DNA of 64,000 nucleotides. Origin: Tubiluchus corallicola. Taxonomy: Eukaryota; Priapulida; Priapulimorpha; Priapulimorphida; Tubiluchidae. This document shows, in pieces, positions 3,494 to 63,400 of this stretch. Each line of letters starts with the position of its first letter. The first letter of the stretch is position 1. A program made the translations under genes and the position numbers. The notes under the pieces were generated by a model. It was given only the letters and a program-made list of their open reading frames with translations, did not search any database and had not been told where the DNA came from. The stretch spans positions 1,023,001 through 1,087,000 of the forward strand of contig JAQGDQ010000009.1 of assembly GCA_030141605.1 (NCBI GenBank), written 5' to 3'.

Positions 3494-6400
3494 TACAACT
3501 GGACGCCGCTGCCAAAGTTTTTTGAGTATGGTGCAGTACGTAAGGACAAATTGAAGAGTATTGAGGCACGCAGAAAAAATATTACCTCAAGCAATAATTA
3601 CGTTGTGACTTTGACGAGTATTAGAATGTGGAATAGTTTGCCATTTTTACTAGAAAAGAAATGAGACATCTAACCTTTCTGCTATTAAAATTGTGGAAAA
3701 AATACTGAAATAAAAATGTGTGTCCCTGTAGCTATTTATCCATATAAAACCAATATTTTAAGGTAATAGCTGATTAATTCGGTAGCATAACTATGGAATT
3801 AAGACCATCTACAAGATAACCCAGTTGGCTTCTAGCATTCATGGGTTAAATGTTTGTGACCTATGGATGGCACTACAGTTTTTAAAACCTGGTTTAAGAC
3901 AGTTACAACTTGCTTTTAAGTTTTTCCTTGCTTTTCATGCATTTTTATGCTGACAGATGTATGTGGTAAACATTATTTTGCTTTACTTTGGCATCTTTGA
4001 TGGCTCTTCTTCATGACTATGGGCCCCTCTAATTTACAAGCTGTCTACAACAACTGCAGGACTTGTGAAAGCATACGTGCACGCTGAAGGTGTTTTACCG
4101 AGCAACTAATGGGGAATTTGTTTTTATTTTCTTAGAGAAATTCTGGATGAACACAATCCTTGGTACTGTACTCGTTGTCAAAAGAATCAGCGGGCTGAGA
4201 AGACGATGACTGTTTGGCGATGCCCTCCCACATTAATTGTTTATTTAAAAAGGTGACTAATTATATCAAATAGTTTACTTGTTTTTAAAAGTAATACACG
4301 TGGTCGATATGTTAATATAACTTTTTTATAATTAAATCTTCGTGCCTTGGAATTTTTTTATCTATAGGGAAACTTTAAATTTTCAAAATTACTGTTGTTC
4401 ATGTTATAACATTACAATATGTACACTTGTCTTTTATTACTTACTAGTTGAAACAATTCCTTGTTTAAAAGGTATTATTTATTGTGGTGTGCTTTTTGTC
4501 ACCACTTTCTCTTTACATTACACCATTTGCACCAGTTACACACTTTTTTACTTCAGCAGAATTAATCTCTTGCATGTTACAGATTTGTCTTTCACGAGCA
4601 TACAAGTTTAAAGTTGGACAACAGAGTCGTCTTTCCACTTGACCACTTTGACCTTTCTCAGCTAATTTCTGGTCCATTTGAAGACAATTTAAGCTATGAC
4701 CTGCACAGCTGTGTTTGTCATTTTGGAGGTAAACCATCACTCAGAGTAATCTTTAGAGTGAAGCTAAACCATCGCTATAATATAAGCTTTTACAACCTAA
4801 AATCCTACTCTGATTAGTATTGTTTAATTTCTTTTATGATAAACTTACGTTAGAATGTGCTTTGTTCAAGCTTTTATCACTTACTTGGTTACAGCCTTTA
4901 ATTTGAAGATCCACCATTTCATTTTCATTGCTTGAGACGAATGACGTAATTAATACTATCACGTGATCATACCTTTTCTATTCGCATGAGTAGAGCAGGG
5001 TACAGCAAGGTATAACCCTAGGTTGCCCTTCTAAAGTGATTGTTTCTGGATGGTGTGATCATGTGTTGCATTTGTCATTGTTGTCTGTGTTGGTTTTGTA
5101 AATGGCTACATTTGTGTTTGTGTGTGTCTTTCTCATGCACATTTGGTGGCTTCATCTAGCCTAAAAGTATGTCATGTATTACGTACGTCATTCTCACTCA
5201 CTCGCACCATTGACTGGAAAAATGGCAATCTTTATGGCAATGCAGGCATTCTAAATTTGCCATGAAGGGTAAGCTATTCAGTTTATTAATTTCCTATACG
5301 TAAAATTAACTGCAGTAGGAACCGCTTAATGAACTCACTTTGGGACGGAAGTGTTTTGACCCAATTAGCTGACTGAACTTATTAACCAATGGATATAGTA
5401 TTACTGGTATAGAAGTATGTGTCACCAGCTTACTATGCACTGCAAAGCTTTTTAATGAATTTTAGAAACAAAGTAATGCCTAAATTCCTTTGTGCAGTTA
5501 AAAATTAGAAAAACACATTTTAAAATATTAATTTATACAAGCAAATTAGCAATAAATTAAAAAAATATACTTTTCCAAATCGCACAAGTCTGTTTATTTG
5601 CAAAAACTACAAAAATTCCTTCAAAGTCACCTGCTTCATTTTATCGCGAAGAAGTTGGCTCACAAAGTTCTCATAATGATAAAAACGTTGAAAATCTGTT
5701 GTTGTATGATGCACAAATTTTCGTAAACTACTTAGCGCTTTTTGCCCGTGTTTCCCCGCAAGTAGCTTCATCTGTAGTTTCATCTAAGCTCCTGCTTGCT
5801 ATCGTGATTTACTGTACTGTACCTGTACCTGTGTCCCTAGCATAACAGCAGCAACTAACTGATTAAGCTTTCTGGCAAAGCTTTCTGGTATGATAAACGT
5901 TCCTGCTTACAAACAAAACGGTGCTTAACGCGATTGTTTCTACGTATATTATAGGACAAAAGCGAACTAAGATGATATTAAAGTCATAAAATCTTATTGG
6001 TCACACGAAAGCATATGAAGCATGTGAAGCAAAAATATTGAGTCAATCATGCGGAGTTATTTGAGTACCGACAGTTTTTATGTACATTTGAGTAGAAGTG
6101 GCCCGTACCAGGCATTTTTGTGTCAATTAAGCGATTGAGTCTATTTAACGTGAGTCTGTTAAGAGGCGCCTACCGTATAAATTATTTATGTAAACATGAT
6201 AATACGTTAAAAACTTCAACATGTGCTGGAGTGTTATAGGCCTTTAAGTCATCACTAAATCAGGATAACCTGTTTGACTGTTAATTGTCTTATTTTGCAG
6301 TCATTCAGTAATTACACACTGTCGCATATAAATTATGTAGAACTTTCAGAGTTAATTAGCATTTTTTCTATTTAGGTCCAAATGCAGGGCACTACACAGC

Positions 6401-15404: not shown

Positions 15405-18400
15405 GTTTGTGCAGAACTTTTATTGTTTTCTTAAACACATAGCTATTTAAAAAAAATAAAGGTTATTTTTAAAAACTTATTTGAGCTTGTCAACATTCAG
15501 CTGGTTGCTTGTTATATTCCATCAATTTCTGTGAAGTTACACAGTACACGCACAATATGTAATATTATATTGTTAGAAATGTTAAATTGTTAGAAATAAT
15601 ATATACATGCTGTTAAAGTTTCTTTGTGGCATCACATGCGTAAATAAACTGGCATTGCTGCCATGTGTTTATTGTAAAACAATACACATCTGTTTAAGTT
15701 TTTGTTTAAACTTTTTGGGTAAGCACAAAAATATAAGTGAAACTCCAAGAGTGTATTTATGCAGTGTGTGTTGTGTGGAACTGAACTGCATCTTGTGTTC
15801 TGCTGATTAGAAGTTATAATATGTATTCTACTACTGAACCAATGACGTTGTTAATGTGGTATCTTAATATTAGGCCATCTAGGCTGTAGACTTTATAGTG
15901 CTGTCATCTGCTGGTAGTTAAGTAGAGCGAGCTGGGGAGTTGTAAGATGTGACTAGAATAGTAAAGTTGAGTTTTGCTTCCTCCAAATCAGAATTGTTAT
16001 ATCATCTAATTATAAAATCTACCTGTCTAAAATGTATCAATAATTAATAACCATATTATAGTTCATATGTAGTTTTGCAAAATGACGTCAGACAGTACTT
16101 CCTGACTTGCTCTTTACAGGTCAGTTTCACATTGACTCACCTCAAAACTTTGCTGTTATAGACACACCATCCGCATCAGTTTATATGACATGGGGCAAAG
16201 TAGAGGGGCCCTGGAATATAAAATTCAATGGCAACCAAGCGATGGCAATGGTAGTGACACTGTTCTTACAGGTGTTGGATCACACAGCAGAAAACCTGGA
16301 TTACCGATTACACATTTTTCATTATGCTGGCAATGGAACATTGACCAGTAGGGAAGAAACTGTTACAGCAAAAACGAATCTGGAAACACCTGACAACTTC
16401 ACTAACATCATTTTTGAAACCTCAAAAAATATTGCTAGTTTGCATTGGGATTCTGATAGTGGTGCCTCTATTGCAAGTTGGAGTTTTGAAGTAGAATCAT
16501 TGAAGTATCGTTTAGTATTTTTTTTGAATGAATTTCCACGAGTTTCCATAAATGTACATATGTGAAGCCAGTAAACATTACACTTATACATTGTACATTG
16601 CCTTGAAATGGGCTATGTTTTGTGTTAGACTGACTGAATTAGGCTAGGAATCTTAGAACTTGAAACTGATACTTAGAACTGATACTTGCTTTTTGCATAG
16701 TCTATTTCAAATTTATAATACCACTACCTACACATACAGGCATAAAAAACTTGGTGTTTTTTAGGTATGCTGTCATATGTTACTACTGTTAATAATTTTC
16801 ATTTAGTTTTATTTATTTACATATTGATTTAATGGCCTGAATTGATTTTGCAGATCTAACATTAATAGATAGTTTAAACAGTAACTTAATAAACGTGTAA
16901 TTTACAGGTCAGTTGCACATTGACTCGCCTCAAAACTTTGCTGTTGCTAATGCCGATAGTACAGATGCAGACAGTGAAATCGTGAGTGACACTGGAACGA
17001 CAAACCTTGACACGCCTAGTAACTTTACTGTCATTGATAAAACTTCAGAAAGTATTACTCTGGAATGGAATTCTGTTAGCAATGCTAGTGAATATAAACT
17101 GAGATGGACAACTTCAGATGGATCTGATGTTGGTGATCATAGCACAAGTGAAACATCTTACACTGTATTGGACTTGTCTCCGTACACCAACTATGTATTC
17201 TACGTTGTTGCCAGTGATGGTAATCCGGGCAATGACAGTGAAGAAGCTAATGTTACTGCAACAACTGATACAGCAGGTGAGTGTTTTGTTTTGTTATGTG
17301 AAAGTATTCGTAAACACTTTTTTACTTTCCATTCTGTTTCTTTCTTTTGAAGCCATTTTTCTCCTAAAATTACTAAACTCATTTTGGGCTTTTATCTTTA
17401 CCTAAAAGTTAAAACCACCATTCTGAAGAACTGACTGTAAAGAGTTACAATCAAATTCAAGCTCCCTTACAGATAATAAAAGAAATATATGATATTGTTG
17501 TGTCAAAGTGTTCCTTTTTATTAAACGTTTTAAGTGTAATTTGCACTTTTGTAAAATGCAGATGAAAATGTGTTGAGACTTCAAAGTGTCTTTTGATAAA
17601 ATTATAAAATTATTGTAATAACTAATATTTTTTAGTGGCAAGTGTGAGTTTCTTAAATCATTAAGGGCAATTAATGTGCTTTATTGGTAGGTTTTTCTAA
17701 TATACTAAAATGTCTGTAGTACTCTTTAAAGCAAAACTCAGTCAGTCAAGCGTCACATGTATTTTTCAAAGGTATATGTCTTTATATTGTATAAGTATCT
17801 AGCAAGTACCTTTATTTCAGGGAAAGCCTCTGGCAATTAACATTGCTTTTGTAAGAGTTTTTAGCCCCGTTTTTATTATTTAAAACAATTTATGCATTTT
17901 GTGTTTGAGTAAGATGACTTTTTCATTAACTTGTGGAACCACTTTGCTTACCACTGTAAAGAACAGAATTTGCACTTTCAAACTATGAATTGCAGTATTG
18001 GGTTAAGTTAATGTTTTTTCATAAAGTATTAAAAAGACAAATGTTGCTCATAGTACAAATGCAAAAGCATTATTTCTATCTTAAAATAGCTGTGAACTAT
18101 AATCAGACATGTATTAGGGGAACTTGGAAATAGCTAAGGGCCACATAGTAGGTTTAGCAAAGTAAAATGAATAAAGTTGAGTCTCATTAGTAAACAATTA
18201 GGTTACCACAGGTAAACCGATTCTAGACGGCTCCATCTGCTGCAGTGCCCCTCGCTATTTACTTTGTAGAGAGAGGATTCATAATTGTATGAACATGCCT
18301 ACTCATTTTTACCATTCTGCATTAAGTAAGCTCTACTGTTAAATCCTGCATATTAGCCTGAAGAGTGTTGAAATACATAAAAAATATTGATGTCATTGCA

Positions 18401-21400
18401 ATTATGTGTAAGTGAAATAAATTACTAAGCTTGACGATGTTTTTGGTTCACTAGAATATGAAGTGCATCATGAAGAAATTTCAACACTTCTGGTTCAAAA
18501 CTTTACTCTATAAACTAATTAAACGTCTATAAACAGGGAATGTGAGGTCCATTCTTGACAGTGTTTTCAAGACAGGTTAATTGATAATTGCTTATCGTTA
18601 CATCAGTAAGCAACGAGTGAACATTTTTACTGTCTCTGACAAAAGAGTTTGTTTCTTTGATAGAAGATGCTTTAAGTGGCAGCTTTTGTTGTGCATTAAC
18701 AAACAGAAATGTTTTTATAATAATTAACAACATGTGTTCAAGTGCTTGACATTAAAAGTTTTAATGAAATCTGAGCTTGTCACTTTTTACCCGAGTACTG
18801 TTCACAGTACATAAAGGTAAAGAGTGCCACAGCAGTGAGTGCCTGAATAAAATATGTGTTTTTGTCTTCTCACACCACCCTGCATCACTGATCACAGCAT
18901 CCAAGTAGCACAAACTGAAGTGGGGTGTGAGCCGTGTCCTATCTGATGACACGTTGTACCATCACATGGAAATGATAAATCAGTTCACACATTGCCAGAT
19001 CCATCATACCCTCATACAACAGCCATTCCCAATTGGCCATGACTGAGAAACCATTAATGGGAAGTGCTGACCAGTGTGCCACATTCTTCCCGCTTGTGCT
19101 GGCAGTGGACTCTCTTAATGCTGTTCAAATGAAAATATTGATGACAGTAATAGTGATGATGAGAAGAGCAAGTATGGAAAATCAACAGGTTTAATCAAGA
19201 ATATTCTCCATACCTCATCAACTAGGGTCAAGTTGTTGCTAAAATATATCAAGATCAGAAAATAAAAAGCAAATTCTTTTGTCTAAGTCATAAATAATGG
19301 GCCTCATCATTCTCAAGTATGAACATTGAACATTCAAAGTGATGACTAACCTGAGTGTTACACACCTTTGCATTATTATTGTCTTTGGTCTTTAGATCTG
19401 GTTTGTAAGTCGACTGCAGTTTTGCACACCTTCGAATTTCATGTCCCACATTACCCACTGTATATCAGGCAAGTAAAAACACAGTAGGCTTCTTGTAATT
19501 TTACTGTTCGTTTGCAGTTTTTGACTATTCATGATACAGCATGAACAGAAATTTCATTAACTTTAAACAAATGTCTTAACCAGGTATAAAAAACCAGCTG
19601 CCATCTTGAACGTAAAGCTCAAAAATAGGTCAAATCAACAGAATGGTATCAAATAAGAATTCTTCGGTAAAAAATATCCCAAAAGCTGTTTACTATGCAG
19701 CTTTGTAGGTCAATTCACTTACAAAATCCAAAAAGACTGATGATGGCCATGTTGGATTTCAGGGAAAAAGTAGATCAAATTGTAAAAACAACGTCGAGTA
19801 TAAATTCTTGAGCCTAATAGTCTCAGAAACCATGTTCTATGTAGCTTTGTAGGCCAAACCACTTAAAAAATAAGATTCGAAACTGCTGACAGTGACATTA
19901 TTAAATCTGAAGGTCAAACATAGATCAAATCGTAAAAGTGACATTAGAAATAAATTTCTTGACCCACAAACCATATACTGTGCATAGAACCATAGACCAA
20001 CTGAATGAAAAGATCATTTTCAAAGTGCCCGACAGTGGCTATTTTGGGTTTTGGACTCTGGCAGAGTTTGCCTACATTTTTGCAAGAGCATATGGGCTAA
20101 ATCTTTTATGTAACCTTCATACAATATGAACCTACTGAGAACTGAACCTATGCTCTTCACAGTCATAGAGGCACTGAAAATAACTATAACTAGGACCACA
20201 AAAAATTTAGTAATATTGACATACACATTACAATGCTTTCTGATTTTTATCAGTTATCAGTTAATGCTTTTTGCAGCTTTAGCAGGTACTAGCATAATTT
20301 CACGACATTATTTAGTGAATGAAGCTTTATCAGCTCAAATTATGCCAGGCTTTGGAAGCAAGTTATTTTCAGGAATGGTGAATCAAAGTTAAACTATATC
20401 CATTATGTATTTTGAAACATTATAATGATTTGTCCAGAGTTTTTGTATGATTAACGTTATTGTTGCAGAAGAATATAAAAAATTGGTTCTAATTTTTAGT
20501 ATCTTTATAAGCAGAATAGACATGGAAATCGAGGACATTTTTGTGCAGTTTCCTTTTTTATGTTGTCTGTTTGCCATTGCTTCTATAATATTTGTACAGC
20601 TTCTATAATATTTGTACAGCATTGTTTTCTTATAATTTAGTGTTTCTACTATTCTACAACAATGATGGCAGTATTTTTGGCACTGATTTTATTAATTTAT
20701 TGTTAGGTAGCAGATATTCAGTATAAATAATAGCTATTACACAACAAATTGCTTAAACAAAAATTTACTACAGTTACATTTCTAAAGTGTAAATCCAAAT
20801 TAATTCTCAGAAAATTTATTGAAAAAATGTGTTTTTCAGTACCAGATGCTCCAGATGAGTTTTTAGCTTTAGTAACTGGATCCAGAAGGATTAATTTAGG
20901 TTGGGATAAACCTCCTGACCATAATGGACCCATTCTTGGCTACAGGATTAGATATTACAGAGCAAATGACGCTGAAGATTTTAGTGAATTACACGTCCCA
21001 TCTACACAGGAGAGTAAAAAGATTATGGGTTTAGAGCCTTGTTCAGCATACAATTTCTCCATTGCCGCTAACACGTCTGCTGGATATGGACCTGAAGCAT
21101 ATGTACTGTCAGACGAAACGCTTCCTGAAAGTACGTAAAACACTTTTACACTAAATCTACTTTTTCTTAAGGATATCCAAAAATTTTTGCACTTTTGTAC
21201 AGCAAATTGTGCATAACTTAACACTGCAAAAGTTAAAGGTAGAATAAAAACAGAAAAAATGAAAACTAAAATGAAAACTTTTAAACATGTTTAAATTCAG
21301 TTTTTGAGCAACTAAGTGGTTTCATTGGTAAAATTTATATACTTGAACTTAAGTAAGCTTTCTTTTTATGCTTTTATTTAACTTCCTGTTTATGCATAAA

Positions 21401-24400
21401 AACTCATCTTCAACTAGTTACTGTTTATCTGTGTAGAAGTTGATTGACCTTTCCATAAATCTGCCTGCATGTTCTCTTACATAATTGAAAGCATTTTTGC
21501 AGCACTACCTAAGGAGCAGAAGTGACTTAATCTAAGTTTATTAGTACATCTAGTATTTTATTTTAGTTACCATATATTGCTCAGTATCATATTATTGTGT
21601 TCAATGCTGTTTTATTGACTTTTTCGGTTAGATCGTACAAGTTTTACTATAACTTACTGTCGTTGGCTTAGCAACTGTATTTGTAACAGGCATGAAAATC
21701 TGTGTGTATTTATATATATATGATATATATATATATCATATTACAAGTAAATGTGTTTTTAATATATATATTTTTCCATTTAATTGATATTTTCAGGAAA
21801 CATTTTAACTTTAAGTATATGCTGAAGTTCTATGCATTTTCTTAAATGTCTTTTCTGTTTCCTAATGTGTTACTAAGTTGCGTGTGATTGAAAATATTTC
21901 ATAAAAAGAGTACAGTGCTGGTATCTGTATTAGCATGAAGATCTGTTCCAAAATTTTTTTAATTTCCATAAGTATGGAATTTAGAAATTTGATTTCCGTA
22001 ATAGAAAGAAAGAATTTTATAATTAAATAACACCCAACAGTAATTATTTGTGGCCTATTACAATTGTTTTATAATATTATATTTTGTGACTGCCATGAGT
22101 TAGCGTACTGCTCAATAGATGGCGCAAGGATGCAACTTTCTAGCTTAGACTGTGCTTGCGCATCTGCATTGTTTTGCTAGTGTTGTTCGTCATTCTGCTT
22201 TGAGGTTATGGATGAAGCAAATGCACTCCTGGCTGGTCAAAGTCGCTGACAACATTGATAAATTTTAACTGCATTTTAATGAAATCTATATCTATACTCT
22301 TATATTAATATTCTTGGTATATATATATATATATATATATATAAGATTCGAGGCTACAGCCCGGACGAGGGCACCATTTGCGGCGATCTATACATCAAAC
22401 GAAAGGTCTCGATCTAGTGTCGTCTCATTGGGGGTTTATGTTTTGAATGGGGCCCACCGCGAGGAACGGGGGGGCGAAAAACCTCCAAAAATGGCCATTT
22501 TTCGGCCGTTTTTTGCAAAAGTTATACGCCTGAGATGTAGAGAACGGGAATGGGCCGAGGGTGGTGCTGGGTGTGGATAGATAGCCCGTTCAGCGGTGGG
22601 TGTCATAGGCCTATTTAGAGTTCCCGAGAGGGCCACGGCGCCCTGCAACGGGTGTTTTCCCGGACCCAACTCGCGATTTTTTCGAAATTTCGGCCAAACG
22701 GCCTGCGGAAAAAACGTTCTAGCGGTGCCTGGTGGGACTCTGGGAAGGAGATATATAGCTCTTTACAAAGAGGAAGAACAGGGCTAGACGATGATGTGGG
22801 CTATATTTTAGGGCAGGTTCACCGAGAGGAGTATTGACGAGTTAATTAGATGTTCTATTTTTCGCAATTTTCGCTTAGAAAACTGCTGACGCAAAGGCAT
22901 TGTTGTGACGTCATCCATTGTACTCTGTCTATAATCTTATAGCTTTAATTCAGTAAAAAGCTGCTACAGGCTTTGCTTTAGTTAAACAAACTGTAGGCAT
23001 GATGTTACGGGCTTTGTGTTATAAATGTGGACTAGGTAGGATGTTCGCGTATTATTGATTATACGTGGTTTTTTACGCAAAATCTTTTGCGGGGGGGCCT
23101 TTACTATTTATTATATTATAGCACATAGTTTCAACTTTGTGAAAAATGTTTGGAATGGTTTTGTTGTAATGCTGTGCTGTTGGTGCTTGTGCTACAGGTG
23201 TCGTCATCGTTGCCACCACCATCATCATCATCATCAACATCATGATCACCACGTGAGGTGGTGGATTTGATGTGGTGTGGTGGTGGTGTGCTTTGTGTGT
23301 TGTGCTATGGAAGGTGTGGTGGGGTGATAGGGTGTGTGGGGTGTGGTGTGGGTAGTGTGGTATGGAGTGGGTGGCGTGGTGTTGTGGTGCAGTGTGGTGT
23401 GGTGTGGGTAGTGTGGTATGGAGTGGGTGGCGTGGTGTTGTGGTGCAGTGTGGTGTTATGGTGTGGTGTGGTGCAGTGCGGTGTGATGTGGTGGAGTATT
23501 ATGGTGTGGGTGGTGTGGTGTGTGGGTGGTGCGGTGTGGTGTGGTGCAGTGTTATGGTGTGGTGCAGTGTGGTGTGATGTGGTGGAGTCGTATGGTGTGG
23601 GTGGTGTGGTGTGGTGTGTGGGTGGTGCGGTGTGCTGCAGTGGTATGGTGTGGTGCAGTGTGGTGTGATGTGGTGGAGTGGTATGGTGTGGGTGGTGTGG
23701 TGCAGTGTGGTGTTATGGTGTGGTGCTGTACAGTGTGATGTAGTGGAGTATTATGGTGTGGTGTGGTGTGTGGGTGGTGCAGTGGTATGGTGTGGTGCAG
23801 TGTGGTGTGATGTGGTGGAGTGGTATGGTGTGGGTGGTGTGGTGTGTAGGTGGTATGGTGTGGTGCGGTGCGGTGTGGTGGTATTGTGTGGTGCAGTGTG
23901 GTGCGATGAGGTGGAGTGGTATGGTGTGGTGTGATGAGGTGGAGTGGTGTGGTGTGGGTTGTGTGTTGATTTGTGCACAAAATTCTTTTTGTGGGGTTTG
24001 GCTAGTTATATTATTAATAAACGTTCTGTGTACTTCATTTTGCATTGAAAACCTCAAACAAGTCATCGGAATGCAAGTCATTTATAACATTAGCGAATTT
24101 AGCAGTTATTGGCCCATCAACTGTTCTAATTGGGAAAGCAATGCAAAGCATTCACATTTATCTGTTATTCTTTACAGCTCATGAAAAACCTGCTGATATT
24201 AGAATGTTTAGTTCTGATGCTTTCAATGCAACTGTAACTTGGGATCCGCCGCCAGAGCCTAAATACTGTGAAGTGGTTGAGTACCAGATCAGTTATCAAA
24301 CTCATCAGAATTATAGTTACAGTGGTGGCATCCCTGAATCTGGCACAGTATATACCCAAAACCTTAGTTCAAGTAAGTGAACTTGCAAAAAACACATGTA

Positions 24401-27400
24401 ATAATGTAATCTGAGGTTTAATGTCGGGATTGTTGTAAAATCGTTACTTGCTCTGCATAATAATATATTTGATTAAATGAACAGAGCCGTCTTTATTTAT
24501 TTATATCTTTTCTCCAAGATTATGATGATATAGAACAACTTTAATAATTTTGTATTTATTTTGTACATTCTTAGTGTAGCTTTATTTAATTTTGAAACAG
24601 TAACAATGATTCTGAACCATCATATATGGTCATAATATCTTGGTTAGTTTTAAGTAAGTGTCCTTAAAATGTACTATCTATAAAAATGTAATATGATAAT
24701 TCAATTTAATTTTGCATATGAATATCTTATTCTAGTCTGAAAAGTTGATTAAATGAAGTTAACAGAGTTTTGCTTATTTGTTTATGACGATGGGAAAAAC
24801 AACTTAGTATTTTTGAGTATATTTTATTTATCTTTTACTGTTTCAACTTTTTGCTTGTGAGAGGTTTGTATTGTTAATTTCCACTTGGATTTATCTAATC
24901 TATTTGAAATTAAAAACTGTTTTTTTACATATTGGTACAAGTAAGTAAAAGCAAATCATTATAAGTCCGTGGAGTGATTGTTTGGTTATTAGTCTGATAA
25001 AACTTAGCTGATGTAGTTAAATAGCCTGCTCTTAGTTGGGTTAATTAAAATTTCAGTTTTATGTAATAATTTTGATATCATTTAATATCTTGGTTAGGCA
25101 TTGAAATAATGTTAACTTTTGATTCAAGTGTGTTGGATTTGACTTGGTTTATAGGTATTGAGGTCCCCGCTGAAAGCAAAGTTTGTGTTACTATAAAAGC
25201 AAAAAATAGTGAAGGTGAATGGGGCGAGTCCTCAGATGAAACATGTATTTGGACAGATGCATCTTGTAAGTTAACGATTTGTTGATTTTAAAGTAAAGTT
25301 CTGCTCATTTTCTGTACTTTAAAATGCAGTGTTTAGAAACACACCTGTGTGATATTAACTAAAATCTATAAGCACTTGTCTTTTTACTAGTATTATCCAC
25401 TATTACTTATTTCTTATAATTATGAATATTGTTGTTTTTGAGTGGGCAGTCATTTGAGGAACTAAATGAAAATAGTACACTGAACATCTGACTGTAAGGA
25501 CTGTAAAATTTAACTTGTGGCAAAATGCATCCCCTGTTAAACGAGTGAAATGATGTGGAAGTTTGTCAAGCTGTGGGTTATGTAGTGACTTGGCTTAATA
25601 AATTAATTAAAGAACCTAAAGTTAACTTGTGCATAATAACATTGGCTATTAGGGCCTGATCAAATTAGATTTCTGCAATGCACAGCTGCTTGTGACTTCT
25701 ATTATCTTGTTATTATGGAGATGTGAAGAAGTTTGAACATGGGGTGCCTGGGCTTTTCTTAAGATCCGTCACAGCAGAATCTTCTTGATTTGGCCCTGGC
25801 TTTTCCTTTTGTTCTTTTTGTTAACATGCACATGTAGAGAGCTATGGTCAGCATGGGTGGGGCTTCTTTCTTTGTTATTCTGTTTATCTTGATGTAGAGC
25901 CACAATTTCTGATTTTTGGCTGGATGGGTTGAGATGCGTTCGATTAAGCTAGTGCGAGGTCTTTAGCTTACATTATAATAGCTATCCAAACTTTTTCACC
26001 TAACCAATTCTTCACCCATTCTCAAAATCAATAGCTATGATACATGAAATGTTGATATATTGATAAGGATCCGCTAGGGGCTAAAGTTTAAAAATAGTAA
26101 GTTGTGTGTCACAAGTATCTAACATGTAGTATTTCCTTGATGGAATTTCTATGAGTTTCTATAAATGCACATATGTGAAGCAAATAAACATTACATTTAT
26201 ACATTGAATATTGTCTTGAATGGGCCATGTAGTGTTGCCAGACTGTGACTACTGTGCATACAGGCATAAGAACTTTTTTTAGATATACTGTCATACATTG
26301 TATAATATTGTATAATAATTTTCATTTAGTTTTATTTATTTACATATTAATTTAATGGCTCGAATTGATTTCGCAGATGCAACAGTAATGGTCAGTTTAA
26401 ACAGTAACTTAAGAAACTTGCAATTTACAGGTCAGTCGCGCATTGACTCACCGCATAACTTTGCTGTTGTAAACACAACATCCACATCAGTTTATCTAAC
26501 ATGGGATGAAGTAGAGGGGGCCTCTGAATATGAACTTCGATGGGAACCAAGCGATGGCGTTGGCAGTGACACTATTTTTGCAAATGTTACATCATATTTA
26601 GCAGAAGAGTTGACAGCTTTTACCGATTACACATTTTTCATTATTGCTAGCAATGAAACAGTGAACAGTACTGAAGAATACTTTGCGGCAAAAACTAATC
26701 TTGAAACACCCAAAAACTTTACTATCAGTTTTAAAACCTCCAGCAGTGTTAGTTTGCATTGGTATGTTGTTAATAACGCAACTTATTACAAGTTGAAATG
26801 GAGTTCTGAAACAGAATCTGGTTCTGACACTGCTATTGCCAGCCAAATACCATTTACTGTAGAAGGTTTATCTTCCTATACTTTGTACACATTTTACTTA
26901 ACTGCTAGTGCCAATAGTACAGATACAGACAGTGAAACCGTGAGTGAGACTGCAACGACAAACCTTGACACGCCTAGTAACTTTATTGTCACTGATAAAA
27001 CTTCGGAAAATGTTACGCTGAACTGGAATTCTGTTAGCAATGCTAATGAATATAAACTGAGATGGACAACTTCAGATGGATCTGGTGTTGGTAATTATGA
27101 CACAAGTGAAACATCTTACACTGTATTGGACTTGTCTCCTTATACCAGTTACGTATTCTACATTGTTGCCAGTGATGGTAATCCAGGCAACGAAAGTGAT
27201 GAAGCTAATGTTACTGCAGTAACTAGACTCGAAACACCTGATAACTTTATTGTCACTAATATAGCCTCAGAGAGTGTTGATTTGCAATGGGATCCTGTTA
27301 CTAATGCTACAGTATACAAGTTAAGATGGAACCCTGCTGATGATGTTGGTGATGACAATGTTGATACCAATCAAACATCATACAATGTGTCCAACTTGTC

Positions 27401-30400
27401 CCCTTACACTGTTTACACATTCTATGTAGCTGCTAGTGATAATAACATTGACACTGACACTGACAGCAATGAGGCTAATGTTACTGCAACAACTGATACA
27501 GCAGGTGAGTGTTTTGTTTTGTTATGTGAAAGTATTCGTAAACACTTTATTACTTTCCATTCTGTTTCTTTCTTTTGAAGCCATTTTTCTCCTAGAATTA
27601 CTAAACTCATTTTGAGCATTTATCTTTACCTAAAAGCTAAACACTAAGCACCATTCTGAAGAACTGACTGTAAGAAGTTACAATCAAATTCAAGCTCCTT
27701 TTCAGTTAATAACAGAAATATAAGATGTTGTAATGTCAAAGTATTCCTTTTAATTAAGTGTAATTAAATTTAATTAAGTAATTTGCATTGTTGTAAAATG
27801 CAGATGAAAATGTGCTGAGACTTCAAACTGTCTTTTGATAAACTTATTGTAATAACCACCATTTCTTAGTGGCAAGTGGGTGTTTCTTAAATCATTAAGG
27901 GCAATTAATATGCTTTATTGGTAGATTTTTCTAAAATATTAAAATTGTCTGTAGCACTTTTTAAAGCAAAACTAAGTCGGTCAGGTGTCACATGTATTTT
28001 TCAAAGGTATATGTCTTTATAATTGTATAAGTATCTAGCAAGTACCTTTATTTCAGGGAAAGCTTCTGGCAATTAACATTACTTTTGTAAGAGCTTTTAG
28101 CCCCGTTTTTATTATTTAAAACAATTTATGCATTTTGTGTTTGAGTAAGATGACTTTTTCATTAACTTGTGGAACCACTTTGCTTACCACTGTAAAGAAC
28201 AGAATTTGCATTTTCAAACTATGAATTGCAGTATTGGGTTAAGTTAATGTTTTTTCATAAAGTATTAAAAAGGCAAATGTTGCTCATAGTACAAATGCAA
28301 AAGCATTATTTCTAGCTTAAAATAGCTGTGAACTGTAATCAGACATGTATTAGGGGAACTTGGAAATAGCTAAGGGCCACATTGTAGGTTTAGCAAAGTA
28401 AAATGAATAAAGTTGAGTCTCATTAGTAAACAATTAGGTTACCACAGGTAAAGGGATTCTGGACGGCTCCATCTGCTGCAGTGCCCTCGCTATTTACTTT
28501 GTTGAGAGAGGATTCATAATTGTATGCACATGCATATTCATTTTTACCATTCTGCATTAAGTAAGCTCTACTGTTAAATCCTGCATGTTAGCCTGAAGAG
28601 TGTTGAAATACATAAAAAATATTGATGTCATTGCAATTATGTGTAAGTGAAATAAATTACTTAGCTTGAGGACGTTTTTGGTTCACTAGAATATGAACTG
28701 CATAATGAAGAAATTTTAACACTTCTAATTCAAAACTTTACTCTATAAACTAATTAAAGGTCTATCAACAAGGAATGTGAGGTCCACTCTTGGCAGTGTT
28801 TTCAAGACAGGTTAATTGATAATTGCTTAAAATTACATCAGTAAGCAACTAGTGAACATTTTTACTGTCTCTGACAGAAGAATTTGATTCTTTGATAGAA
28901 GATGCTTTAAGTAGCAGCTTTTGTTGTGCATTAACAAACAGAAATGTTTTTATAATTATTAACAACATGTGTTCAAGTGCTTGACATTAAAAGTTTTAAT
29001 GAAATCTAAACTTGTCACTTTTTACCCGAGTACTGTTCATAGTACATAAAGGTATAGAGTGCCACAGCAGTGAGTGCCTGAATAAAATATGTGTTTTTGT
29101 CTTCTCACACCACCCTGCATCACTGATCACAGCATCCAAGTAGCACAAACTGAAGTGGGGTGTGAGCCGTGTCCTATCTGATGACACGTTGTACCATCAC
29201 ATGGAAATGATAAATCAGTTCACACATTGCCAGATCCATCATACCCTCATACAACAGCCATTCCCAATTGGCCATGACTGAGAAACCATTAATGGGAAGT
29301 GCCGACCAGTGTGCCACATTCTTCCCGCTTGTGCTGGCAGTGGACTCTCTTAATGCTGTTCAAATGAAAATATTGATGACAGTAATAGTGATGATGAGAA
29401 GAGCAAGGGTGGAGAATCAACATGTTTAGGCAAGAATATTCATCCGTACCTCATCAAGTAGGGTCAAGTTGTTGCTAAAACATATCAAGATAAGAAAGTA
29501 AAAAACAAATTCTTTTGTCTAAGTCATAAATAATGATCCTCATCATTCTCAAGTATGAACATTGAACATTCAAAGTGGTGACTAACCTGTGTGTTACACA
29601 CATTTGCATTATTATTGTCTTGGTCTATAGATCTGGTTTGTAAGTCGACTGCAGTATTGCACACCTTCGAATGCATGTCCCACATTACCCACTGTATATC
29701 CGGCAAGTAAAAACACAGTGGGCTTCTTGTAATTTTACTGTTCGTTTGCAGTTTTTGACTGTTCATAGTACAGCATGAACAGAAATTTCATTGATTTTTA
29801 ATAAATGTCTTAACCAGGTATAAAAAACCAGCTGCCATCTTGAACATAAAGCTCAAAAATAGGTCAAATCAACAGAATGGTATAAAATGGAATTCTTCCA
29901 TAAAAAATGTCACAAAAGCTGTTTACTATGCAACTTTGCAGGTCACTTCACTTAGAAAACACAAAAAAACTGATGATGGCCATTTTGGATTTCTGGGAAC
30001 AAGTAGATCAAATTGTAAAAACAACGTCGAGTATGAATTCCTTGAGCCTAATTGTCTCAGAAACCATATTCTATGTAGCTTTGTAGGCCGAACCACTTAA
30101 AAAATAAGATTCGAAATTGCTGACAGTGGCAATGTTAAATCTGAAGGTCAAACATAGATCAAATCGTAAAAGTGACATTAGAAATAAATTTCTTGACCCA
30201 CAAACCATATACTGTGCATAGAACCATAGACCAACTGAATGAAAAGATCATTTTCAAAGTGCCCGACAGTGGCTATTTTGGGTTTTGGGCTCTGGCAGAG
30301 TTTGCCTACATTTTTGCAAGAGCATGTGGGCTAAATCTTTTATGTAACCTTCATACAATATGAACCCACTGAGAACTGAGCCTATGCTCTTCACAGTCAT

Positions 30401-33400
30401 AGAGGCACTGAAAATATCTATAACTAGGACCACAAAAATTTGAGTAATATTGACATACACATTACAATGTTTTCTGATTTTCATCAGTTATCAGTCAGTG
30501 CTTTTTGCTGCTTTAGCAGGTACTAGCATAATTTCATGACATTATTTAGTAAATGAAGCTTTATCAGCTCAAATTATGTCATCCTTTGGGAGCCAGTTAT
30601 TTTCAGGGATGGTGAATCAAAGTTAAACTATATCCATTATGTATTTTGAAACATTATAATGATTTGTCAGGAGTTTTTTTATGATTAATGTTATTGTTGC
30701 AGAAGAATATAAAAAATTGGTTCTTATTTTTAGTATCTTTATAAGCAGAATAGACATGGAAATCGAGGACATTTTTGTGCAGTTTCCTTTTTTTATGTTG
30801 TCTGTTTGCCATTGCTTCTATAATATTTGTACAGCTTCTATAATATTTGTTTTCTTATAATTTAGTGTTTCTACTAGTCGACAACAATGGCAGCAATATT
30901 TTTGGCACTGATTTTATTAATTTATTGTTAGGTAGCAGATATTCGAGTATAAATAATAACTATTACACAACAAATTGCTTAAACAAAAATTTACTACAGT
31001 TATATTTCTAAAGTGACAATCCACATTAATTCTTAGAAAATTTATTGAAAAAATGTGTTTTTCAGTGCCAGATGCTCCAGATCAATTTAAAGCTTTTGTT
31101 GGATCCAGAAGGATTACTTTAAGTTGGGATAAACCTCCTGAAGATAATGGACCCATTCTTGGCTACAGGATTAGATATTACAGAGCAAATGACAGTGAAG
31201 ATTTTAGTGAATTACACGTCCCATCTACACAGGAACATGAGAGTAAAATGATTATGGGTTTAGAACCTTGTTCAGCATACAATTTCTCCATTGCCGCTAA
31301 CACATCTGCTGGATATGGACCTGAAGCATATGCACTGTCAGACAAAACGGATCCTGAAAGTATGTAAAACACTTTTACACTAAATCTACTTTTTCTTAAG
31401 GATACCCGAAAATTTTTGCACTTTTGTGCAGCAAATTGTGCTTAACTTAACACTGCAAAAGTTAAAAAGTAAAATGAAAACAGAAAACAATTAAAACTAA
31501 AATGAAAACTTAAAAAAATGTATAAATTCAGTTTTTGAGCAACTAGGTGGCTTCATTGGTAAGAGTTATATACTTGAACTTAAGTAAGTTTTCTCTTTAT
31601 GCTTTTATTTAACTTTCTGTTTATGCATAAAAATTCTTCAATTAGTTACTGTTTATCTGTATAGAAGTTGATTGACCTTTCCATAAATCTGCCTGCATGT
31701 TCTCTTACATAATTAAAAGCATTTTTGCAGCACTACCTAAGGAGCAGAAGTGACTTAATCTAAGTTTATTAGTACATCTAGTATTTTATTTTAGTTACCA
31801 AATATTGCTCAGTATCCTATTATTGTGTTCAATGCTGTTTTATTGACTTTTTTCAGTTAGATCGTACAAGTTTTACTATAACTTACTGTCGTTGGCTTAG
31901 CAACTGTATTTGTAACAGGCATGAAAATCTGTGTGTATTTATATATATATGATATATATATATCATATTACAAGTAAATGTGTTTTTAATATATATATTT
32001 CTCCATTTAATTGATATTTTCAGGAAACATTATTAACTTTAAGTATATGCTGAAGTTCTATGCATTTTCTTAAATGTCTTTTCTGTTTCCTAATGTGTTA
32101 CTAAGTTGCGCGTGATTGAAAATATTTCATAAAAAGAGTACAGTGCTGGTATCTGTATTAGCATGAAGGTCTGTTCCAAAATTTTTGAATTTCCAAGTGT
32201 GGAATTTAGAAATTTGATTTCCACAATAGAAACAAAGAAATTACACCCAACAGTAATTATTTGTGGCCTATTACAATTGTTTTATAGTATTATATTTTGT
32301 GATTGCCGTGAGTTAGCGTAGTGCTCAGTAGATGGTGCAAAGATGCAACTTTCTAGCTTTGAGTGTGCTTGCGAATCTGCATCGTTTTGCTAGTGTCGTT
32401 CTTCATTCTGCTTTGAGGTTATGGACGAAGCAAATGCACTCGTGGCTGGTCAAAGTCGCTGACAACATTGATAAATTTTAACTGCATTTTAATGAAATTA
32501 TATTATTAATAAACGTTCTTTGTACTTCATTCTGCATTGAAAACGTCAAACGAGTCATCGGAATGCAGGTCATTTATAACATTAACGAATTTAGCAGTTA
32601 GTGGCCCATCAACTGTTCTAATTGAGAAAACAATGCAAAGCATTCATGTTTATCTGTTATTCTTTACAGCTCATGAAGCACCTGCTAATGTTACAATGTT
32701 TAGTTCTGATGCTTTCAATGTAACTGTAACTTGGGATCCACCGCCAGAGCCTAAATACTGTGAAGTGGTTGAGTACGAGATCAGTTATCAAACTCATCAG
32801 AATTATAGTTATGATGGTGACATCCCTGATTCTGGCACAGTATACACCACAGATCTTAGTTCAAGTAAGTGAACTTGCAAAAAACACCTGAAGTTTGATG
32901 TTGTGGTTGCTGTAAAATCTTTACTTGCTCTGCATACTGTATTGGTTAAATGAACAGAGCCGTCTTCATTTATTTATATCTTTTCTCCAAGATTATGATG
33001 ATATAAAACAACTTTAATAATTGTGTGTGTTTTTTTGTACATTCCTAGTATAGCTTTATTTAGTTTTGAAACAGTAACAATGATTCTAAACCACAATATA
33101 TAGTCATAATTACTTGGTTAGTTTTAAGTAAATATCCTTAAAATGTACTATCTATAAAAATATAATATAATAATTCATTTTAATTTTGCATATGAAAATC
33201 TTATTCTAGTCTGAAAAGTTGATTAAATGAACTTTGCTTAATTGTGAAAAACAACTTAATATTTGTGGGTTTATTTCATTCATAATGTTTTAACTTTTTA
33301 CCTGTGAGAGCGATTCTGCAGCTTTATATCGAAAAGTTCAAATAGTGTTAATTTCCACTTGGATTTATCTAATCTATTTGAAATTATAGCTGTTTTTACA

Positions 33401-57400: not shown

Positions 57401-60400
57401 TCGGAACTCTTGCAAATGCATATATGCACAATACAAGAATCAGCTAAATCACTCTGTTTTGCTGTAATTACAAGATATGATGAAACTATATGTTCTTAAT
57501 TTGTTTGCTCCAGTTCAATGGACTGTAAAAAAGTTAACGTAAAGTTCGATTTATTTAAATCCTAGATTTAAATGCCATGCACATACAAGAAAGAGATTGT
57601 TAACTTCGTGTAAATTATGACTGCTTTGGAATTATGGACGCAAGTAAGTTAAATGATTTAGTGATACTGATGTGTATTGCTATAACATAGTGTTCTATAG
57701 CAAGAAAACTAACCGGCTCTAAAATTTTCTGGTGCCCACTAGTGATTTTCCAGTAGACTTATGAAGCCAAGTTTGATGCTTCCAAAATTCTCATGAATCT
57801 TAGACTCAGCAGCCAAATTGTCATGTGGTTCCTCTTGTAATTAATATTTCAGTAAACTTTTAAAAATAATGAGGGACCTATGACAACTCCTTGTGTTGAA
57901 ATAGACGCCTAACATAAGAATCGGCATTATCAAAGTTAAATCGATAAGTATTATTCTATACTGTACATTTTATATTGCAATGCAGGTTTACATAACCTTA
58001 TGTTGTAAAATTTCGATGTGGGCTTAATACATTATGCATAAAATTGCCTGACCGTATATTAAGAAAAACATGGTTTTTGGTTCAACGGTTCAGCTTAGTG
58101 AACCTTTACTCTCAGTCTTAGCTGTCTGTCTATGATCTGAGACCGCTGATCCGATTCAAACCAAACTGGTGGGGTCTGAACTCTAACTGTGCAGTAGAAA
58201 TTGATTACCATGGTAACCATGGTTGCTTTGCAACGCATGATTATCTTCTAAAATTTGTACTTCACGGCTTTAAAAATTATCTCCTCCAAAATTGCTGATA
58301 TAGTGAAGGTGTGACTTGGTATTGTGGTACCTCTAATAATTATCTGAAACATGTCTGAGTGGAAGTTTAGAAATTTTATCTGTCTGTCTGTCTGCTTGTG
58401 TTTCCTCATTATTTCTCCAAGATCGCTGATTCTATTCCAACCAAACTTGTACAACAGGTGAGATCCATTTGGAACAAAGTTGCCTAGCAATGTCCGAAAA
58501 ACTTAAATTTCTAAAACTGGTACTTTTCTAGCAACTTTACTTATAACTTCAAAGCTGCTGAGGTAGTGAAGACGAAACCCTGTACTGTGATTCGAGGTAT
58601 AATTATCGAAAGTTCTAAGCATTTGCTGTTTTGAAATATGAGCACCATTATGACACCATAGTTATTTCAGGATTTATAATATCCATTATTTCTGGCCAAC
58701 TGGCTTGCATATTTTGAGTTGATTTATGTACAATTAATTTCACCCAAATTTACCATTATTCACTTTTAATAAGTTATAACAGGCACATTGTTGTATTTCT
58801 AAACTTTGCAATAGGGCCGAAGCTTCATTCGATTTTCTGCAGTGATGACTTTACAACAATCAACTTAGAGGAAAAAAACAGATGACAAGGTTACTGTGCA
58901 ATATTTGATGTTAGCTTAATTTTGACTGCTCCATTTTTAGGGTAATGACTCCCCTAGGGAATACATTGTAGCACAGTCACCCATGAAATCTACAGTGAAT
59001 GAATGGTGGAGGATGATTTGGGAGAACAATGTTGACATTGTTTTAATGCTTGAACAACTTGTGGAGAAAAATCAGGTACCGAATTTACTTGCTTTTTACT
59101 ACAAATACTTATGCCATGCAACAATTAGCAGAATATTTCCAAAATTTAAGTAATTTGATACCAGTTACACCCAGCTAGATAAGCTGTTTTATTAGCAAAA
59201 GTCTGCATATTGTGAGATTTAGTGTATATTGGTTATCAGAGCAGTTCACTTTTCTGACAAATTTTCTAGCTGACAAAAACAACAAATTGCAAATACAGTA
59301 GGTACTGTTTAGTAGACTCACGGTTAATAGACTCAGTCGTTTAATTTACTCAGAAACACCTGGAAAGGCCGCTTCTATTCAAATGTATATAAAAACTGTC
59401 GGTAATTGACTCAAATAGCTCCGCATAATTGTCTCAATTTTATTACTTCAGGCACTTAAAATAAGATGCTTATGTGTGACCAAAGAGCTTTTACTGTTTT
59501 TACATCTTCTTTACATGGATTTTGTGCACTATAATATATGTAAAAACAGTGATATGCACAGCTTTGTTTGTAAGTTGGTGAAGTACATTTATCACATGCA
59601 CTAATATGTTAGCTTAGTGGTAATGCTTTGAATCTGCCACATGCTTGTCCACTGCAGTTAACCTCATTGTTTGTGGAAGCTAAACATTTAATCACTTGCT
59701 CAAATGCAGCTCAAGCACTAGGTGACTAGGTGTTCTGCGTGAACATGTACAGCATACAGCAACAGATTTTCGACGTTTTTATCATTATGAAAATTTCATA
59801 AACCAACTTTTTCGTGAAGAAGTGAAGCAACCGACCGTCCATGAATTTTTGTAATTTTTAGCAACAATAATCAGTTTTTTGGAATTTTTTCTTTTTTTGT
59901 TAGTTCACTTATATAAATTATGCTTCTTATTAGTTCACTTACATAAATGATTGCACATACGTATTTTTGACATTAATTAGTTCTGCAAATTCATTTAAAG
60001 CCTTTGCAATGCATACTAAGATGAGTGTTGACTCATACTTATATGGTAGTAATATACTAAACCTGTTGGCTGATTGACTCAGTCGGCTAATTGGGTCAAA
60101 ACACTTCCATCCCAAAGTGTGTCTATTAAGCGGTGCCTACAGTTGTTCATAGATTTAGTTAAAAGTTAGTGTGATCATATTATTAACTTATTATATTAAC
60201 TTAAATGATGCATCTTTGGTGAGTTAGATGATTTGGTTTGTTTTGTACGACAAATATCGATTAGCTATATTTTATTTTATTATCTTCTTCTCACTTGATT
60301 TTTACCCATTTTGCACCATTTCCTCAGAAGTATTGAAGTGAATAATTTTTTCTAGGAAAGATGCTATAAATATTGGCCTTCACATTGTAGTCAATTGGTT

Positions 60401-63400
60401 TTTGGCAATATTCAAGTTACTGTGACTTTTGAAAGTCATAGTGAAAATTACTATATTCGCCTTATGGATGTAAGATCAGTAAGTATATTCAAAGATTCAA
60501 TTATTCCCCACTTTTTTGATTATGCCATGTTTTGGTCATGCAAAATACTAGTAATATAATCACGTGTAATTATGCAGTTATCATCATCTTATTTTTTATT
60601 TGTTTTTCTTTAATTTTTACCATTTAATTTTTGCTAATAGAACTACTCTATCAGATGTCAAGAATTCCAGCAATGTTGCATAATTTATTTGCTTGTATTA
60701 CTAGAAGAAATGACTGATGTTCATTGTAAGTTCAATTTTTTCTGAACAATTTGCAAGGTTGTATGACAGTAGGTATCTATTTTTTGGTAGTTAACAATGA
60801 TAATGACGATACTGAGGTTGATGGTAGTAGTAATGATGTGATGTGTAGCTTTTTATTAAAAACATATCTTATCCGTTATGGGTTGATAAACTAGTTCTGA
60901 ATACTACATGCACTTAGATTATTATGGTACATTTGAGTTCATGGGGCTCTAATGTGTTATCCTAATACATAAATTAATGTATGGATTGTGCAAAAATGTA
61001 TTCGGGTATAGGTTGCTCGGCATAATGAATTTTGCCTTTATGAATTTCATAAATCCGGCATTTATTGGTGGTTTTGTACGGCAAAGCCGACTTTTGTGTA
61101 AAAAAGGATATTAATAGTGCCGATGACAACTACGTCTTAATCACAATGTTAGTAGTGATGTTAACGATGATGAAAGGTAATGGTGATTTGTAGTAGTAGT
61201 AGTAGTAGTAGTAGTAAAATCTTTATTTGCCATTTTAAAACATTGACCATCATAATAGAAGACGGACAACCAGTGTTAGTTCATATAAAAAAAACATACA
61301 CTGTTCTGGGCAAATGCGTCTGGTAGTGATGGTGGTGACTGCGGCAGTGACATTGAATATTGGGATAGATGATGATGATGATGATTTTGTTACAGCAAGA
61401 AGAGCAACGAACATTAACACAGATACAGTTTTTTGGATATGTGGATGACATGTGCCCAGAAGACACATCAGCTTTTTTGTCTATACCACCAGTTGTTCAT
61501 ATACAACGAGGTGCTAATAATAGCTCACCAGTTCTTGTACATTGCAGGTAAATGACAAGTATTGTGTTATTTGCTTGATTCTTCACACATACACATGATG
61601 ATAAAAAAACTGTTAACGAAGTTTTCTAGTCAAATGGATTTACTTTTGGTATTTTGCTTGTATTTGATATTAAATAATGGTAAATTATGCGCTGCACAGT
61701 TTTAGACCGATAATTGCTACATTCTCATTTTTATTATATATCGAATTGAGGGTGAAACCAACTAGTTTTTCTTACTAGAAAGCCTTTTTTGAGTCAAACA
61801 TTTTGCTGCTAATATGCTATCAACAAGTCACAGTCTAGATTAACAATTTATAAACTATATACAAATAGGTAATATTATACCTGCTCTCATTAACATGTGT
61901 ACCAAGTTCATTAGTGTTTAACTTTCATACACTCTGTGACCGCTCATTTTTTGGCTATTGACTAAACAGAGAACAGCTCATAAAGAGTCATTGCAATTAA
62001 TATAAATATGCATAATATTTATTTGTAGTAGTGGATCCGGTAGGACTGGGTCATATGTGTGTGTCGACCGCTTAGTAAAATCCATTCAACAAGGAGCTGA
62101 TACTATTGATGTGTTTGGGCTTGTACTGCAACTGTTAGAGTATAGAATAAAAATTATCCAGACTGAGGTAAAGAAATTAAATTGGTAAATTGAACTTTTG
62201 TCACAAACATGTTAATTACTAGCCTTCTTGCTTGTAATATTATTCAGCAAATAATGCATTCGAATGACGCTTAATGTATTTGTTGATGTTCTGATGTAAT
62301 TCTGATGAAATAATCTAATCGATGATTTTAGTAGTGAATTTCTTTATTACTGTTATAGGCTGAGTACATGTTTATACATAGATGCATTAGAGATATGCTG
62401 GCCAAGCAGTCTGGTGATGCAGTCAATGAAATTACATGTAGGTATCCACATATTGGTATACTCTATGTTTACTGCCATTCCAGTGCGATAACTACACACC
62501 AGCATGCCTCGTAGGTGAAGGGGGTGGGGATAAGTGTTAGAGGGGGCCATTGTCGTAAAAAAAGCCAACATGGGCACCAACAATAATTACATTTGTCAGA
62601 CACGTTGCAAGGTTGTATGACAATAGGTATCTATTTTTGGTAGTTCATAATGATAATGACGATACTGAGGTTGATGGTAGTGGTAATGATGTGATGTGTA
62701 GCTTTTTATTAAAAACATACCTTGTCCGTTATGGGTCGATAAACTAGTTCTGGTTACTGCATGCACTTAGATTATTAGCGTACATTTGAGTTCATGGGGC
62801 TCTAATGTGTTATCCTAATACATTAATTAATGTATGGATTGTGCAAAAATGTATTTGGGTATAGGTTGCTCGGCATAATGAATTTTGCCTTTATGAATTT
62901 CATATATCCGGCATTTATTGGTGATTTTGTATGGCAGAGCCAACTTTTGTGTAAAAAAAGGATATTAATAGTGCTGATGACAACTACGTTTTAATCATAA
63001 TGTTATTAGTGATGTTGACGATGATGAAAGGTGATGGTGATTTGTGATATTGGTGGTGGTGACTGCGGCAGTGACATTGAATATTGGGATAGATGATGAT
63101 GATGATTTTGTTACAGCAAGAAGAGCAACGAACATTAACACAGATAGTTTTTTGGATATGTGGATGACACATATGTTGGCTTTTTTTCATAAATCATTTT
63201 TAAAATTGTAGCACATCAGTAAGCTGTAAAAAATGTGCATTGAATAATAAGAGTAGATCATTTTGCAGGGGTCTCCGAAGCGTAGGTATGCTGCTGTGCT
63301 GTTTTCGACTATTAGCAGCCATTTTACCTCCTAATGGGAAAATTAAACTTAGCTTGTATAACCACAAGTTTATGTTTTAAAAAGATGACACATTAAATGT

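What the first reader, a model, noticed from the sequence alone, without database searches (positions are those of the whole stretch)
18821..19172. 352-bp intronic island almost frozen between two tandem duplicates
Between 18821-19172 and 29056-29407 I count one mismatch and no gap in 352 bp, while the 400 bp upstream has about 28 differences and the downstream flank changes at once. At the flanking rate some 20-25 changes would be expected. Neither strand has a long intact ORF. The pattern fits either local gene conversion or a functional element (structured RNA, enhancer, or a recent insertion homogenised in both). It is the strongest unexplained signal in the window.
Basis: seen in the sequence. 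Interest (0 to 1): 0.75.

Follow-up and report, generated by a model that had tools for sequence, protein, structure and literature searches.

The report
Gene-conversion tract between intron duplicates
A 352-base stretch looks frozen between two neighbouring copies of an intron, but a third copy in the same genome has changed there at the usual pace, so the likeliest cause is an ordinary repair event, gene conversion, in which one copy recently overwrote the other.

Summary
In detail: 18821-19172 and 29056-29407 differ at 1 of 352 bases, where about 19 differences are expected. A third copy, C, lies inverted about 76-86 kb away on the same contig, outside the window. In the island C differs from A at 19/351 and from B at 18/351, an ordinary level, and C-only changes are not reduced (18/351 against 128/4019). 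So only the A-B distance collapses; the sequence is not held still. With old repeat fragments as outgroups, A and B share derived bases at 7 island sites and other groupings at 0; in the flanks it is 1 against 23 (Fisher p 3e-6). Constraint cannot give shared new bases; copying can. Other pairs have such tracts too, including a 393-bp B=C tract. The island lies inside a decayed repeat whose other fragments run across its borders, folds like shuffled sequence, and the two reading frames scanned match no Pfam family. Verdict: a recent interlocus gene-conversion tract, direction undetermined, in an intron of what looks like a receptor tyrosine phosphatase gene. An assembly error is the main remaining rival. 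Ordinary; low interest.

The parts
18821..19172 (+). Island in copy A: A=B conversion tract. At most 352 bp, between the flanking A-B differences at 18820 and 19173; at least 283 bp, between the outermost supporting sites 18839 and 19121.
29056..29407 (+). Island in copy B: partner of the tract.
17277..20839 (+). Intron of copy A that holds the island, between two fibronectin type III exons (GT donor and AG acceptor read from the sequence).
27505..31065 (+). Corresponding intron of copy B (donor read from the sequence, acceptor side inferred from the A-B alignment).
16904..17276 (+). Fibronectin type III exon upstream of the intron in copy A (left end approximate).
   Evidence: fn3 PF00041, E 3.3e-13 for 16904-17275
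20840..21129 (+). Fibronectin type III exon downstream of the intron in copy A (right end approximate).
   Evidence: fn3 PF00041, E 1.8e-14 for 20842-21129
18608..20184 (+). Decayed dispersed repeat that contains the island; fragments elsewhere in the genome are mostly 60-80% alike and cross both island borders. Limits approximate, family not identified.
17859..18036 (+). Another A=B stretch, 178 bp with at most one difference; C changes fast here, so it is weaker evidence for conversion.
31900..32292 (+). B=C tract, 393 bp with at most one difference (B against the inverted copy C, C679:1125346-1125738); A differs here.
21246..21315 (+). A=C run: 7 consecutive variable sites where A and C agree against B.
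58944..59075 (+). Piece of a tyrosine-phosphatase domain on the same strand downstream, which suggests the gene type.
   Evidence: PF00102 match C679:1081944-1082075
62012..62167 (+). Further piece of a tyrosine-phosphatase domain.
   Evidence: PF00102 match C679:1085012-1085167

Best explanation
The island is an interlocus (ectopic) gene-conversion tract. A segment with fibronectin type III exons is present twice in tandem (A and B, about 10.2 kb apart), and a third copy, C, lies inverted on the same contig in what looks like a sister gene. The copies drifted apart by about 5-7%. More recently, repair of a break or stalled fork in one of the two tandem copies used the other as template and copied 283-352 bp; since then one substitution has accumulated. 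The sequence inside the tract is part of an old decayed repeat and shows no sign of function. Shown: pair-specific loss of divergence, normal divergence of C inside the island, shared derived bases, a tree that conflicts with the flanks, and near-identical tracts for another pair. Inferred: the repair mechanism and the rough age. Not settled: the direction.
For: A-B 1/352, A-C 19/351, B-C 18/351 in the island; outside, in 4,019 trimmed three-way columns, A-B 219, A-C 280, B-C 200. C-only changes 18/351 inside against 128/4019 outside, odds ratio 1.64, p 0.06, so not fewer. A-B differences 1 against 19.1 expected, p 2.8e-7. Of 19 variable three-way sites in the island 18 read A=B; such a run (18 with one exception) appears in 2 of 20,000 shuffles, and in 0 of 20,000 with the fast C stretch 17860-18140 left out. 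Outgroup polarisation: shared-derived A=B at 7 island sites and other groupings at 0, flanks 1 against 23, p 3.0e-6; with at least two supporting outgroups 7/0 against 1/21, p 5.1e-6. Variable-site classes are clustered along the unit: 153 changes of class against a shuffled mean of 235.5 (sd 8.8), none of 10,000 as low. B=C stretches of 393, 214, 182, 170, 159, 157 and 151 bp have at most one difference.
Against: No relative's genome, population sample or reads were available to show the event directly. Three copies are few. The outgroups are repeat fragments mostly 60-80% alike whose own relationships are unknown; in the island only five of the 14 gave bases, and 3 of the 7 shared-derived sites rest on a 2:1 vote. 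The island is not the longest A=B run of variable sites: one of 22 sites lies at 17866-18027, where C changes fast. The local B-C and A-C distances do not agree on a direction of copying. An assembly that used the same reads for both copies would look similar.
Confidence: 0.92

Rival explanations
1. Assembly artefact: reads of one copy were used to build or polish both copies over this stretch.
For: A and B are about 95% alike and 10 kb apart, and the tract is short. The reads were not available.
Against: No N in the 64-kb window or in the 16 kb around C; the tract holds one difference; similar tracts link B with the inverted copy C. None of this excludes an artefact.
Confidence: 0.05
2. A functional non-coding element (enhancer or structured RNA) under strong purifying selection in A and B.
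For: 1 of 352 differences; higher GC than the rest of the intron, 0.446 against 0.31-0.32.
Against: C carries 18-19 changes in the same 351 bp. A and B share derived bases at 7 sites, which selection for the old sequence cannot give. Outgroup bases match A at 72.5% in the island, 72.8% downstream and 79.1% upstream. Fold z-scores -0.24 and -0.46; no Rfam match. C has the same GC, 0.444. An element that works only in the gene of A and B, with C released, would escape the C test but not the shared-derived test.
Confidence: 0.02
3. A young transposon or repeat inserted at the same place in both copies.
For: The island lies in a dispersed repeat.
Against: C has the same sequence at the same place. 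Old fragments elsewhere are co-linear across the island borders and mostly 60-80% alike, so the repeat is old and was there before the copies split.
Confidence: 0.01

Closest known systems
Interlocus (ectopic) gene conversion between paralogs, as reviewed for Caenorhabditis (PMC3966223; passages seen)
   Same: Near-identical tract between diverged paralogs, reported for direct and opposing orientation and reaching into introns; tract lengths 12-2,958 bp, mean 117 bp, for a sample of 7,829 duplicate pairs.
Concerted evolution of mammalian gene pairs, tested with GENECONV and intron identity (PMC2720389; passages seen)
   Same: Mosaic of near-identical and diverged stretches and a permutation-type test of shared fragments.
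   Different: Those pairs show raised GC in converted introns; here the raised GC is equally present in C, so it is no evidence for conversion.

Membership tests
Interlocus gene-conversion tract | Near-identity between two paralogs in a stretch bounded by diverged sequence | tested here: met
   1/352 inside; 26 and 29 substitutions in the 400 bp on either side
Interlocus gene-conversion tract | Identity is specific to one pair; a third paralog diverges normally | tested here: met
   C differs at 18-19 of 351; C-only changes 18/351 against 128/4019
Interlocus gene-conversion tract | Tree of the tract conflicts with the tree of the flanks, with shared derived bases | tested here: met
   7/0 against 1/23, p 3.0e-6; outgroups are diverged repeat fragments
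Interlocus gene-conversion tract | Run of agreeing variable sites longer than chance (the principle of GENECONV) | tested here: met
   2 of 20,000 shuffles; own script, not the GENECONV program
Interlocus gene-conversion tract | Non-reciprocal transfer seen against an unconverted allele or relative | not testable with these tools
   no relatives of this genome are held
Interlocus gene-conversion tract | A donor and a recipient can be named | tested here: inconclusive
   Unit-wide distances favour B to A, local distances fall between the two directions
Constrained non-coding element | Slow change in every copy that keeps the element | tested here: not met
   C changes at the ordinary rate; outgroup match no higher than in the flanks
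Structured RNA | Folding better than shuffled sequence, or match to a known family | tested here: not met
   z -0.24 and -0.46; 38 and 27 of 100 shuffles fold at least as well; no Rfam match
Structured RNA | Covarying base pairs | not tested
   no covariation test was run
Protein-coding exon (open frame in C) | Substitutions mostly at third codon positions and gaps in threes | tested here: not met
   Mismatches by codon position: A 9, 9, 6; L006 25, 23, 28; L008 35, 19, 29; L007 17, 13, 14; L009 9, 10, 11; 19 of 24 gaps are not multiples of three. No Pfam or PDB match.

The most novel reading that the evidence does not exclude
The three-copy cluster is a site of repeated and still active conversion, also between inverted copies some 70-90 kb apart, and the decayed repeat inside the intron acts as a preferred place of exchange, so that fibronectin modules of receptor phosphatase genes keep being shuffled.
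Probability: 0.08. Interest if true: 0.35.

Novelty: new member of a known kind. Interest (0 to 1): 0.12.

Why it matters
It shows that a stretch frozen between two paralogs is not by itself evidence of function: one further paralog and a few old repeat fragments as outgroups separate copying from constraint. For this gene it warns that ages of duplicates read from intron identity are biased by conversion.

Tried and rejected
Structured RNA: average folding on both strands, no Rfam family in the window at the curated cut-offs or at E up to 1 in 18700-19300. Transfer RNA: none found in the window. Coding: the 61-codon minus-strand stretch has no Pfam match. The 139-codon open frame of copy C has no Pfam or PDB match, and its changes are spread over codon positions with 19 of 24 gaps not in threes. 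Against this, its translation matches L007 at 51% over 45 aligned columns (E 1.4e-11) and L006 at 41%, which the DNA similarity alone could give. I take it as a chance or relic frame. The other stop-free stretches of A were not scanned. Raised GC as a mark of conversion: C has it too.

Rows dropped before counts: the trimmed counts (and the first distance row) leave out columns with a gap in any copy, and A positions 17480-17560 and 19740-20150, where C is deleted or badly aligned; they run over A 17300-22291. The untrimmed counts agree (C-only 18/351 against 178/4294, p 0.41), but their longest A=B run, 35 sites at 19912-20091, is an alignment artefact in C and is not used. The second test also leaves out 17860-18140, where C changes fast. 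Polarisation used variable ungapped sites at A 18500-19740 with an outgroup base: 19 in the island (2 undecided) and 62 outside (11 undecided); 14 loci (L006-L019) were given, and L006, L007, L008, L009 and L019 supplied the bases in the island.

Direction of copying: not settled. Unit-wide, B-C in the island (18/351) equals the outside rate (200/4019) while A-C is lower (19/351 against 280/4019), as if B had been copied into A. In the 1,041 columns nearest the island (18265-19740) B-C is 40 and A-C 65, so 18 lies between the two expectations.

Literature: a search for gene conversion with receptor phosphatase and fibronectin terms returned 0 papers, which says little. One for tract length and tandem duplicates returned 1 paper, seen in the listing only. 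One for gene conversion and GENECONV in introns of paralogs found 23 papers, 12 listed; of two I saw passages.

Full report
Observation. Positions 18821-19172 and 29056-29407 differ at one base with no gap. The two introns belong to a duplicated unit: A 17006-22291 against B 27228-32503 at 92.3% identity, and A 24006-26122 against B 32498-34658. In 100-column windows of the unit the A-B substitutions mostly lie between 1 and 12; the island has 0, 0 and 1, and three other single windows (from 19950, 20550 and 21639) also have 0. The 400 bp upstream have 26 substitutions and the 400 bp downstream 29. Shuffling the 180 differing columns of the 3,519-column intron never gave so long a run with at most one mismatch (0 of 20,000).

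Setting. The exons on either side of the intron (A intron 17277-20839 by its GT and AG borders) encode fibronectin type III domains. Pieces of a tyrosine-phosphatase domain lie downstream on the same strand at 58944-59075 and 62012-62167. The gene therefore looks like a receptor-type tyrosine phosphatase; this is inferred from domains in order on one strand, without transcripts.

The third copy. The genome search with the island listed seven matches: A, B, a 94% copy at C679:1128007-1128357 on the minus strand, and four partial matches at 69-89%. The flanks also match this third place. The copy, called C here, covers most of the unit. It lies on the same strand as four phosphatase-domain pieces at C679:1098326-1101867, so it is probably part of an inverted sister gene.

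The decisive comparison. In the island A-B differ at 1/352, A-C at 19/351 and B-C at 18/351. Outside, in 4,019 trimmed three-way columns, A-B differ at 219, A-C at 280 and B-C at 200. C-only changes number 18/351 inside against 128/4019 outside (odds ratio 1.64, p 0.06), so C has not been held back in the island; A-B differences number 1 against 19.1 expected (p 2.8e-7). Of 19 variable sites in the island 18 read A=B against C. Such a run occurs in 2 of 20,000 shuffles of the variable sites, and in 0 of 20,000 without the fast C stretch at 17860-18140. It is not the longest: a run of 22 lies in that fast stretch.

Shared derived bases. Old fragments of the repeat that contains the island (L006-L019, mostly 60-80% identical) served as outgroups. 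In the island the outgroups side with C, which makes A=B the derived state, at 7 of 18 A=B sites; with A=B at 9; undecided at 2. Three of the 7 are 2:1 votes. The one remaining site is an A-only change. In the flanks (A 18500-19740) groupings by shared derived bases are B=C 20, A=C 3 and A=B 1. The island thus has the tree (A,B),C and its flanks (B,C),A: Fisher 7/0 against 1/23, p 3.0e-6, and 7/0 against 1/21, p 5.1e-6, when two outgroups must agree; the test treats sites as independent. Selection can keep old bases but cannot give A and B the same new ones; copying does. Outgroup bases match A in the island at 680 of 938 (72.5%), downstream at 1,512 of 2,077 (72.8%) and upstream at 988 of 1,249 (79.1%), so there is no sign of island-specific conservation.

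Mosaic. The classes of variable site are strongly clustered along the unit (153 changes of class, shuffled mean 235.5, sd 8.8). Other stretches with at most one difference are A=B 191 and 178 bp, and B=C 393, 214, 182, 170, 159, 157 and 151 bp; none of 150 bp or more was found for A=C, though a run of 7 A=C sites at 21246-21315 is unlikely by chance (p 0.0016, or 0.0086 when one exception is allowed). The 191-bp A=B stretch lies where C is partly missing and the 178-bp one where C is fast, so both are weaker. B and C are the closer pair in general, so some of their shorter stretches may be chance; their longest run of 13 sites has p 0.0009. The 393-bp B=C tract is longer than the island, so the island is not unique.

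What the island consists of. It lies within a decayed dispersed repeat, roughly 18608-20184. The left part, about 18610-18790, has at least 37 relatives beyond the three paralogs (41 matches listed, 4 of them paralog pieces; 40 of 108 candidates scored). Fragments of the rest are fewer in the lists. Fragments cross the left border of the island in L008 and L019 and the right border in L006, L008 and L009, so the borders are not those of an element. The repeat was not identified.

Direction and age. The direction is not settled: the unit-wide distances favour B into A, the local ones fall between the two. One difference against about 19 expected puts the event at roughly 5% of the A-B divergence time, with a wide error because it rests on one change (inference).

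Compared with what is known. Interlocus gene conversion with tracts of this size, in introns and between direct or opposing neighbours, is established. The review of Caenorhabditis paralogs gives 12-2,958 bp for a sample of 7,829 pairs and cites reach into introns in 15% of detected events (PMC3966223, passages seen). A mosaic of converted and diverged stretches tested with GENECONV is described for mammalian pairs (PMC2720389, passages seen). The break-repair mechanism is general knowledge and not shown here. The case is a further member of a known kind, of low interest. Reads, relatives and population data could not be examined.

Noticed in passing
window 22292-24005: Copy A alone carries an insertion of about 1.7 kb, absent from B and C, made of a TA run, a block of about 620 bp and a simple repeat rich in G. 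The block (22340-22960) had 2,811 first-look candidates in the genome, of which 40 were scored; 41 of the 43 listed matches are nearly full length at 90-100% identity (one is the window itself) and some lie in tandem about 0.8 kb apart, so it looks like a satellite-like or mobile family.
   Followed up: partly
L004:6986-7405 (minus strand), copy C of the island: A 139-codon open frame runs through the island in C, broken in A and B; it does not show coding-type change and has no Pfam or PDB match, though short translated matches to older repeat fragments exist.
   Followed up: yes
window 31900-32292 and C679:1125346-1125738: B and the inverted copy C are near-identical over 393 bp (at most one difference) where A differs: a second candidate conversion tract, longer than the island.
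   Followed up: partly
window 41706-42060 and 49337-49788: Two very recent tandem duplications: 178 bp at 99.4% identity and 223 bp at 100%.
   Followed up: no
window 60751-61450 and 62605-63169: Two blocks about 94% alike near the phosphatase-domain pieces, perhaps another local duplication.
   Followed up: no
window 5306-6181, 37488-38243, 54926-56071, 59293-60143: A dispersed repeat family, about 68-89% alike, with four copies in the window in both orientations.
   Followed up: no
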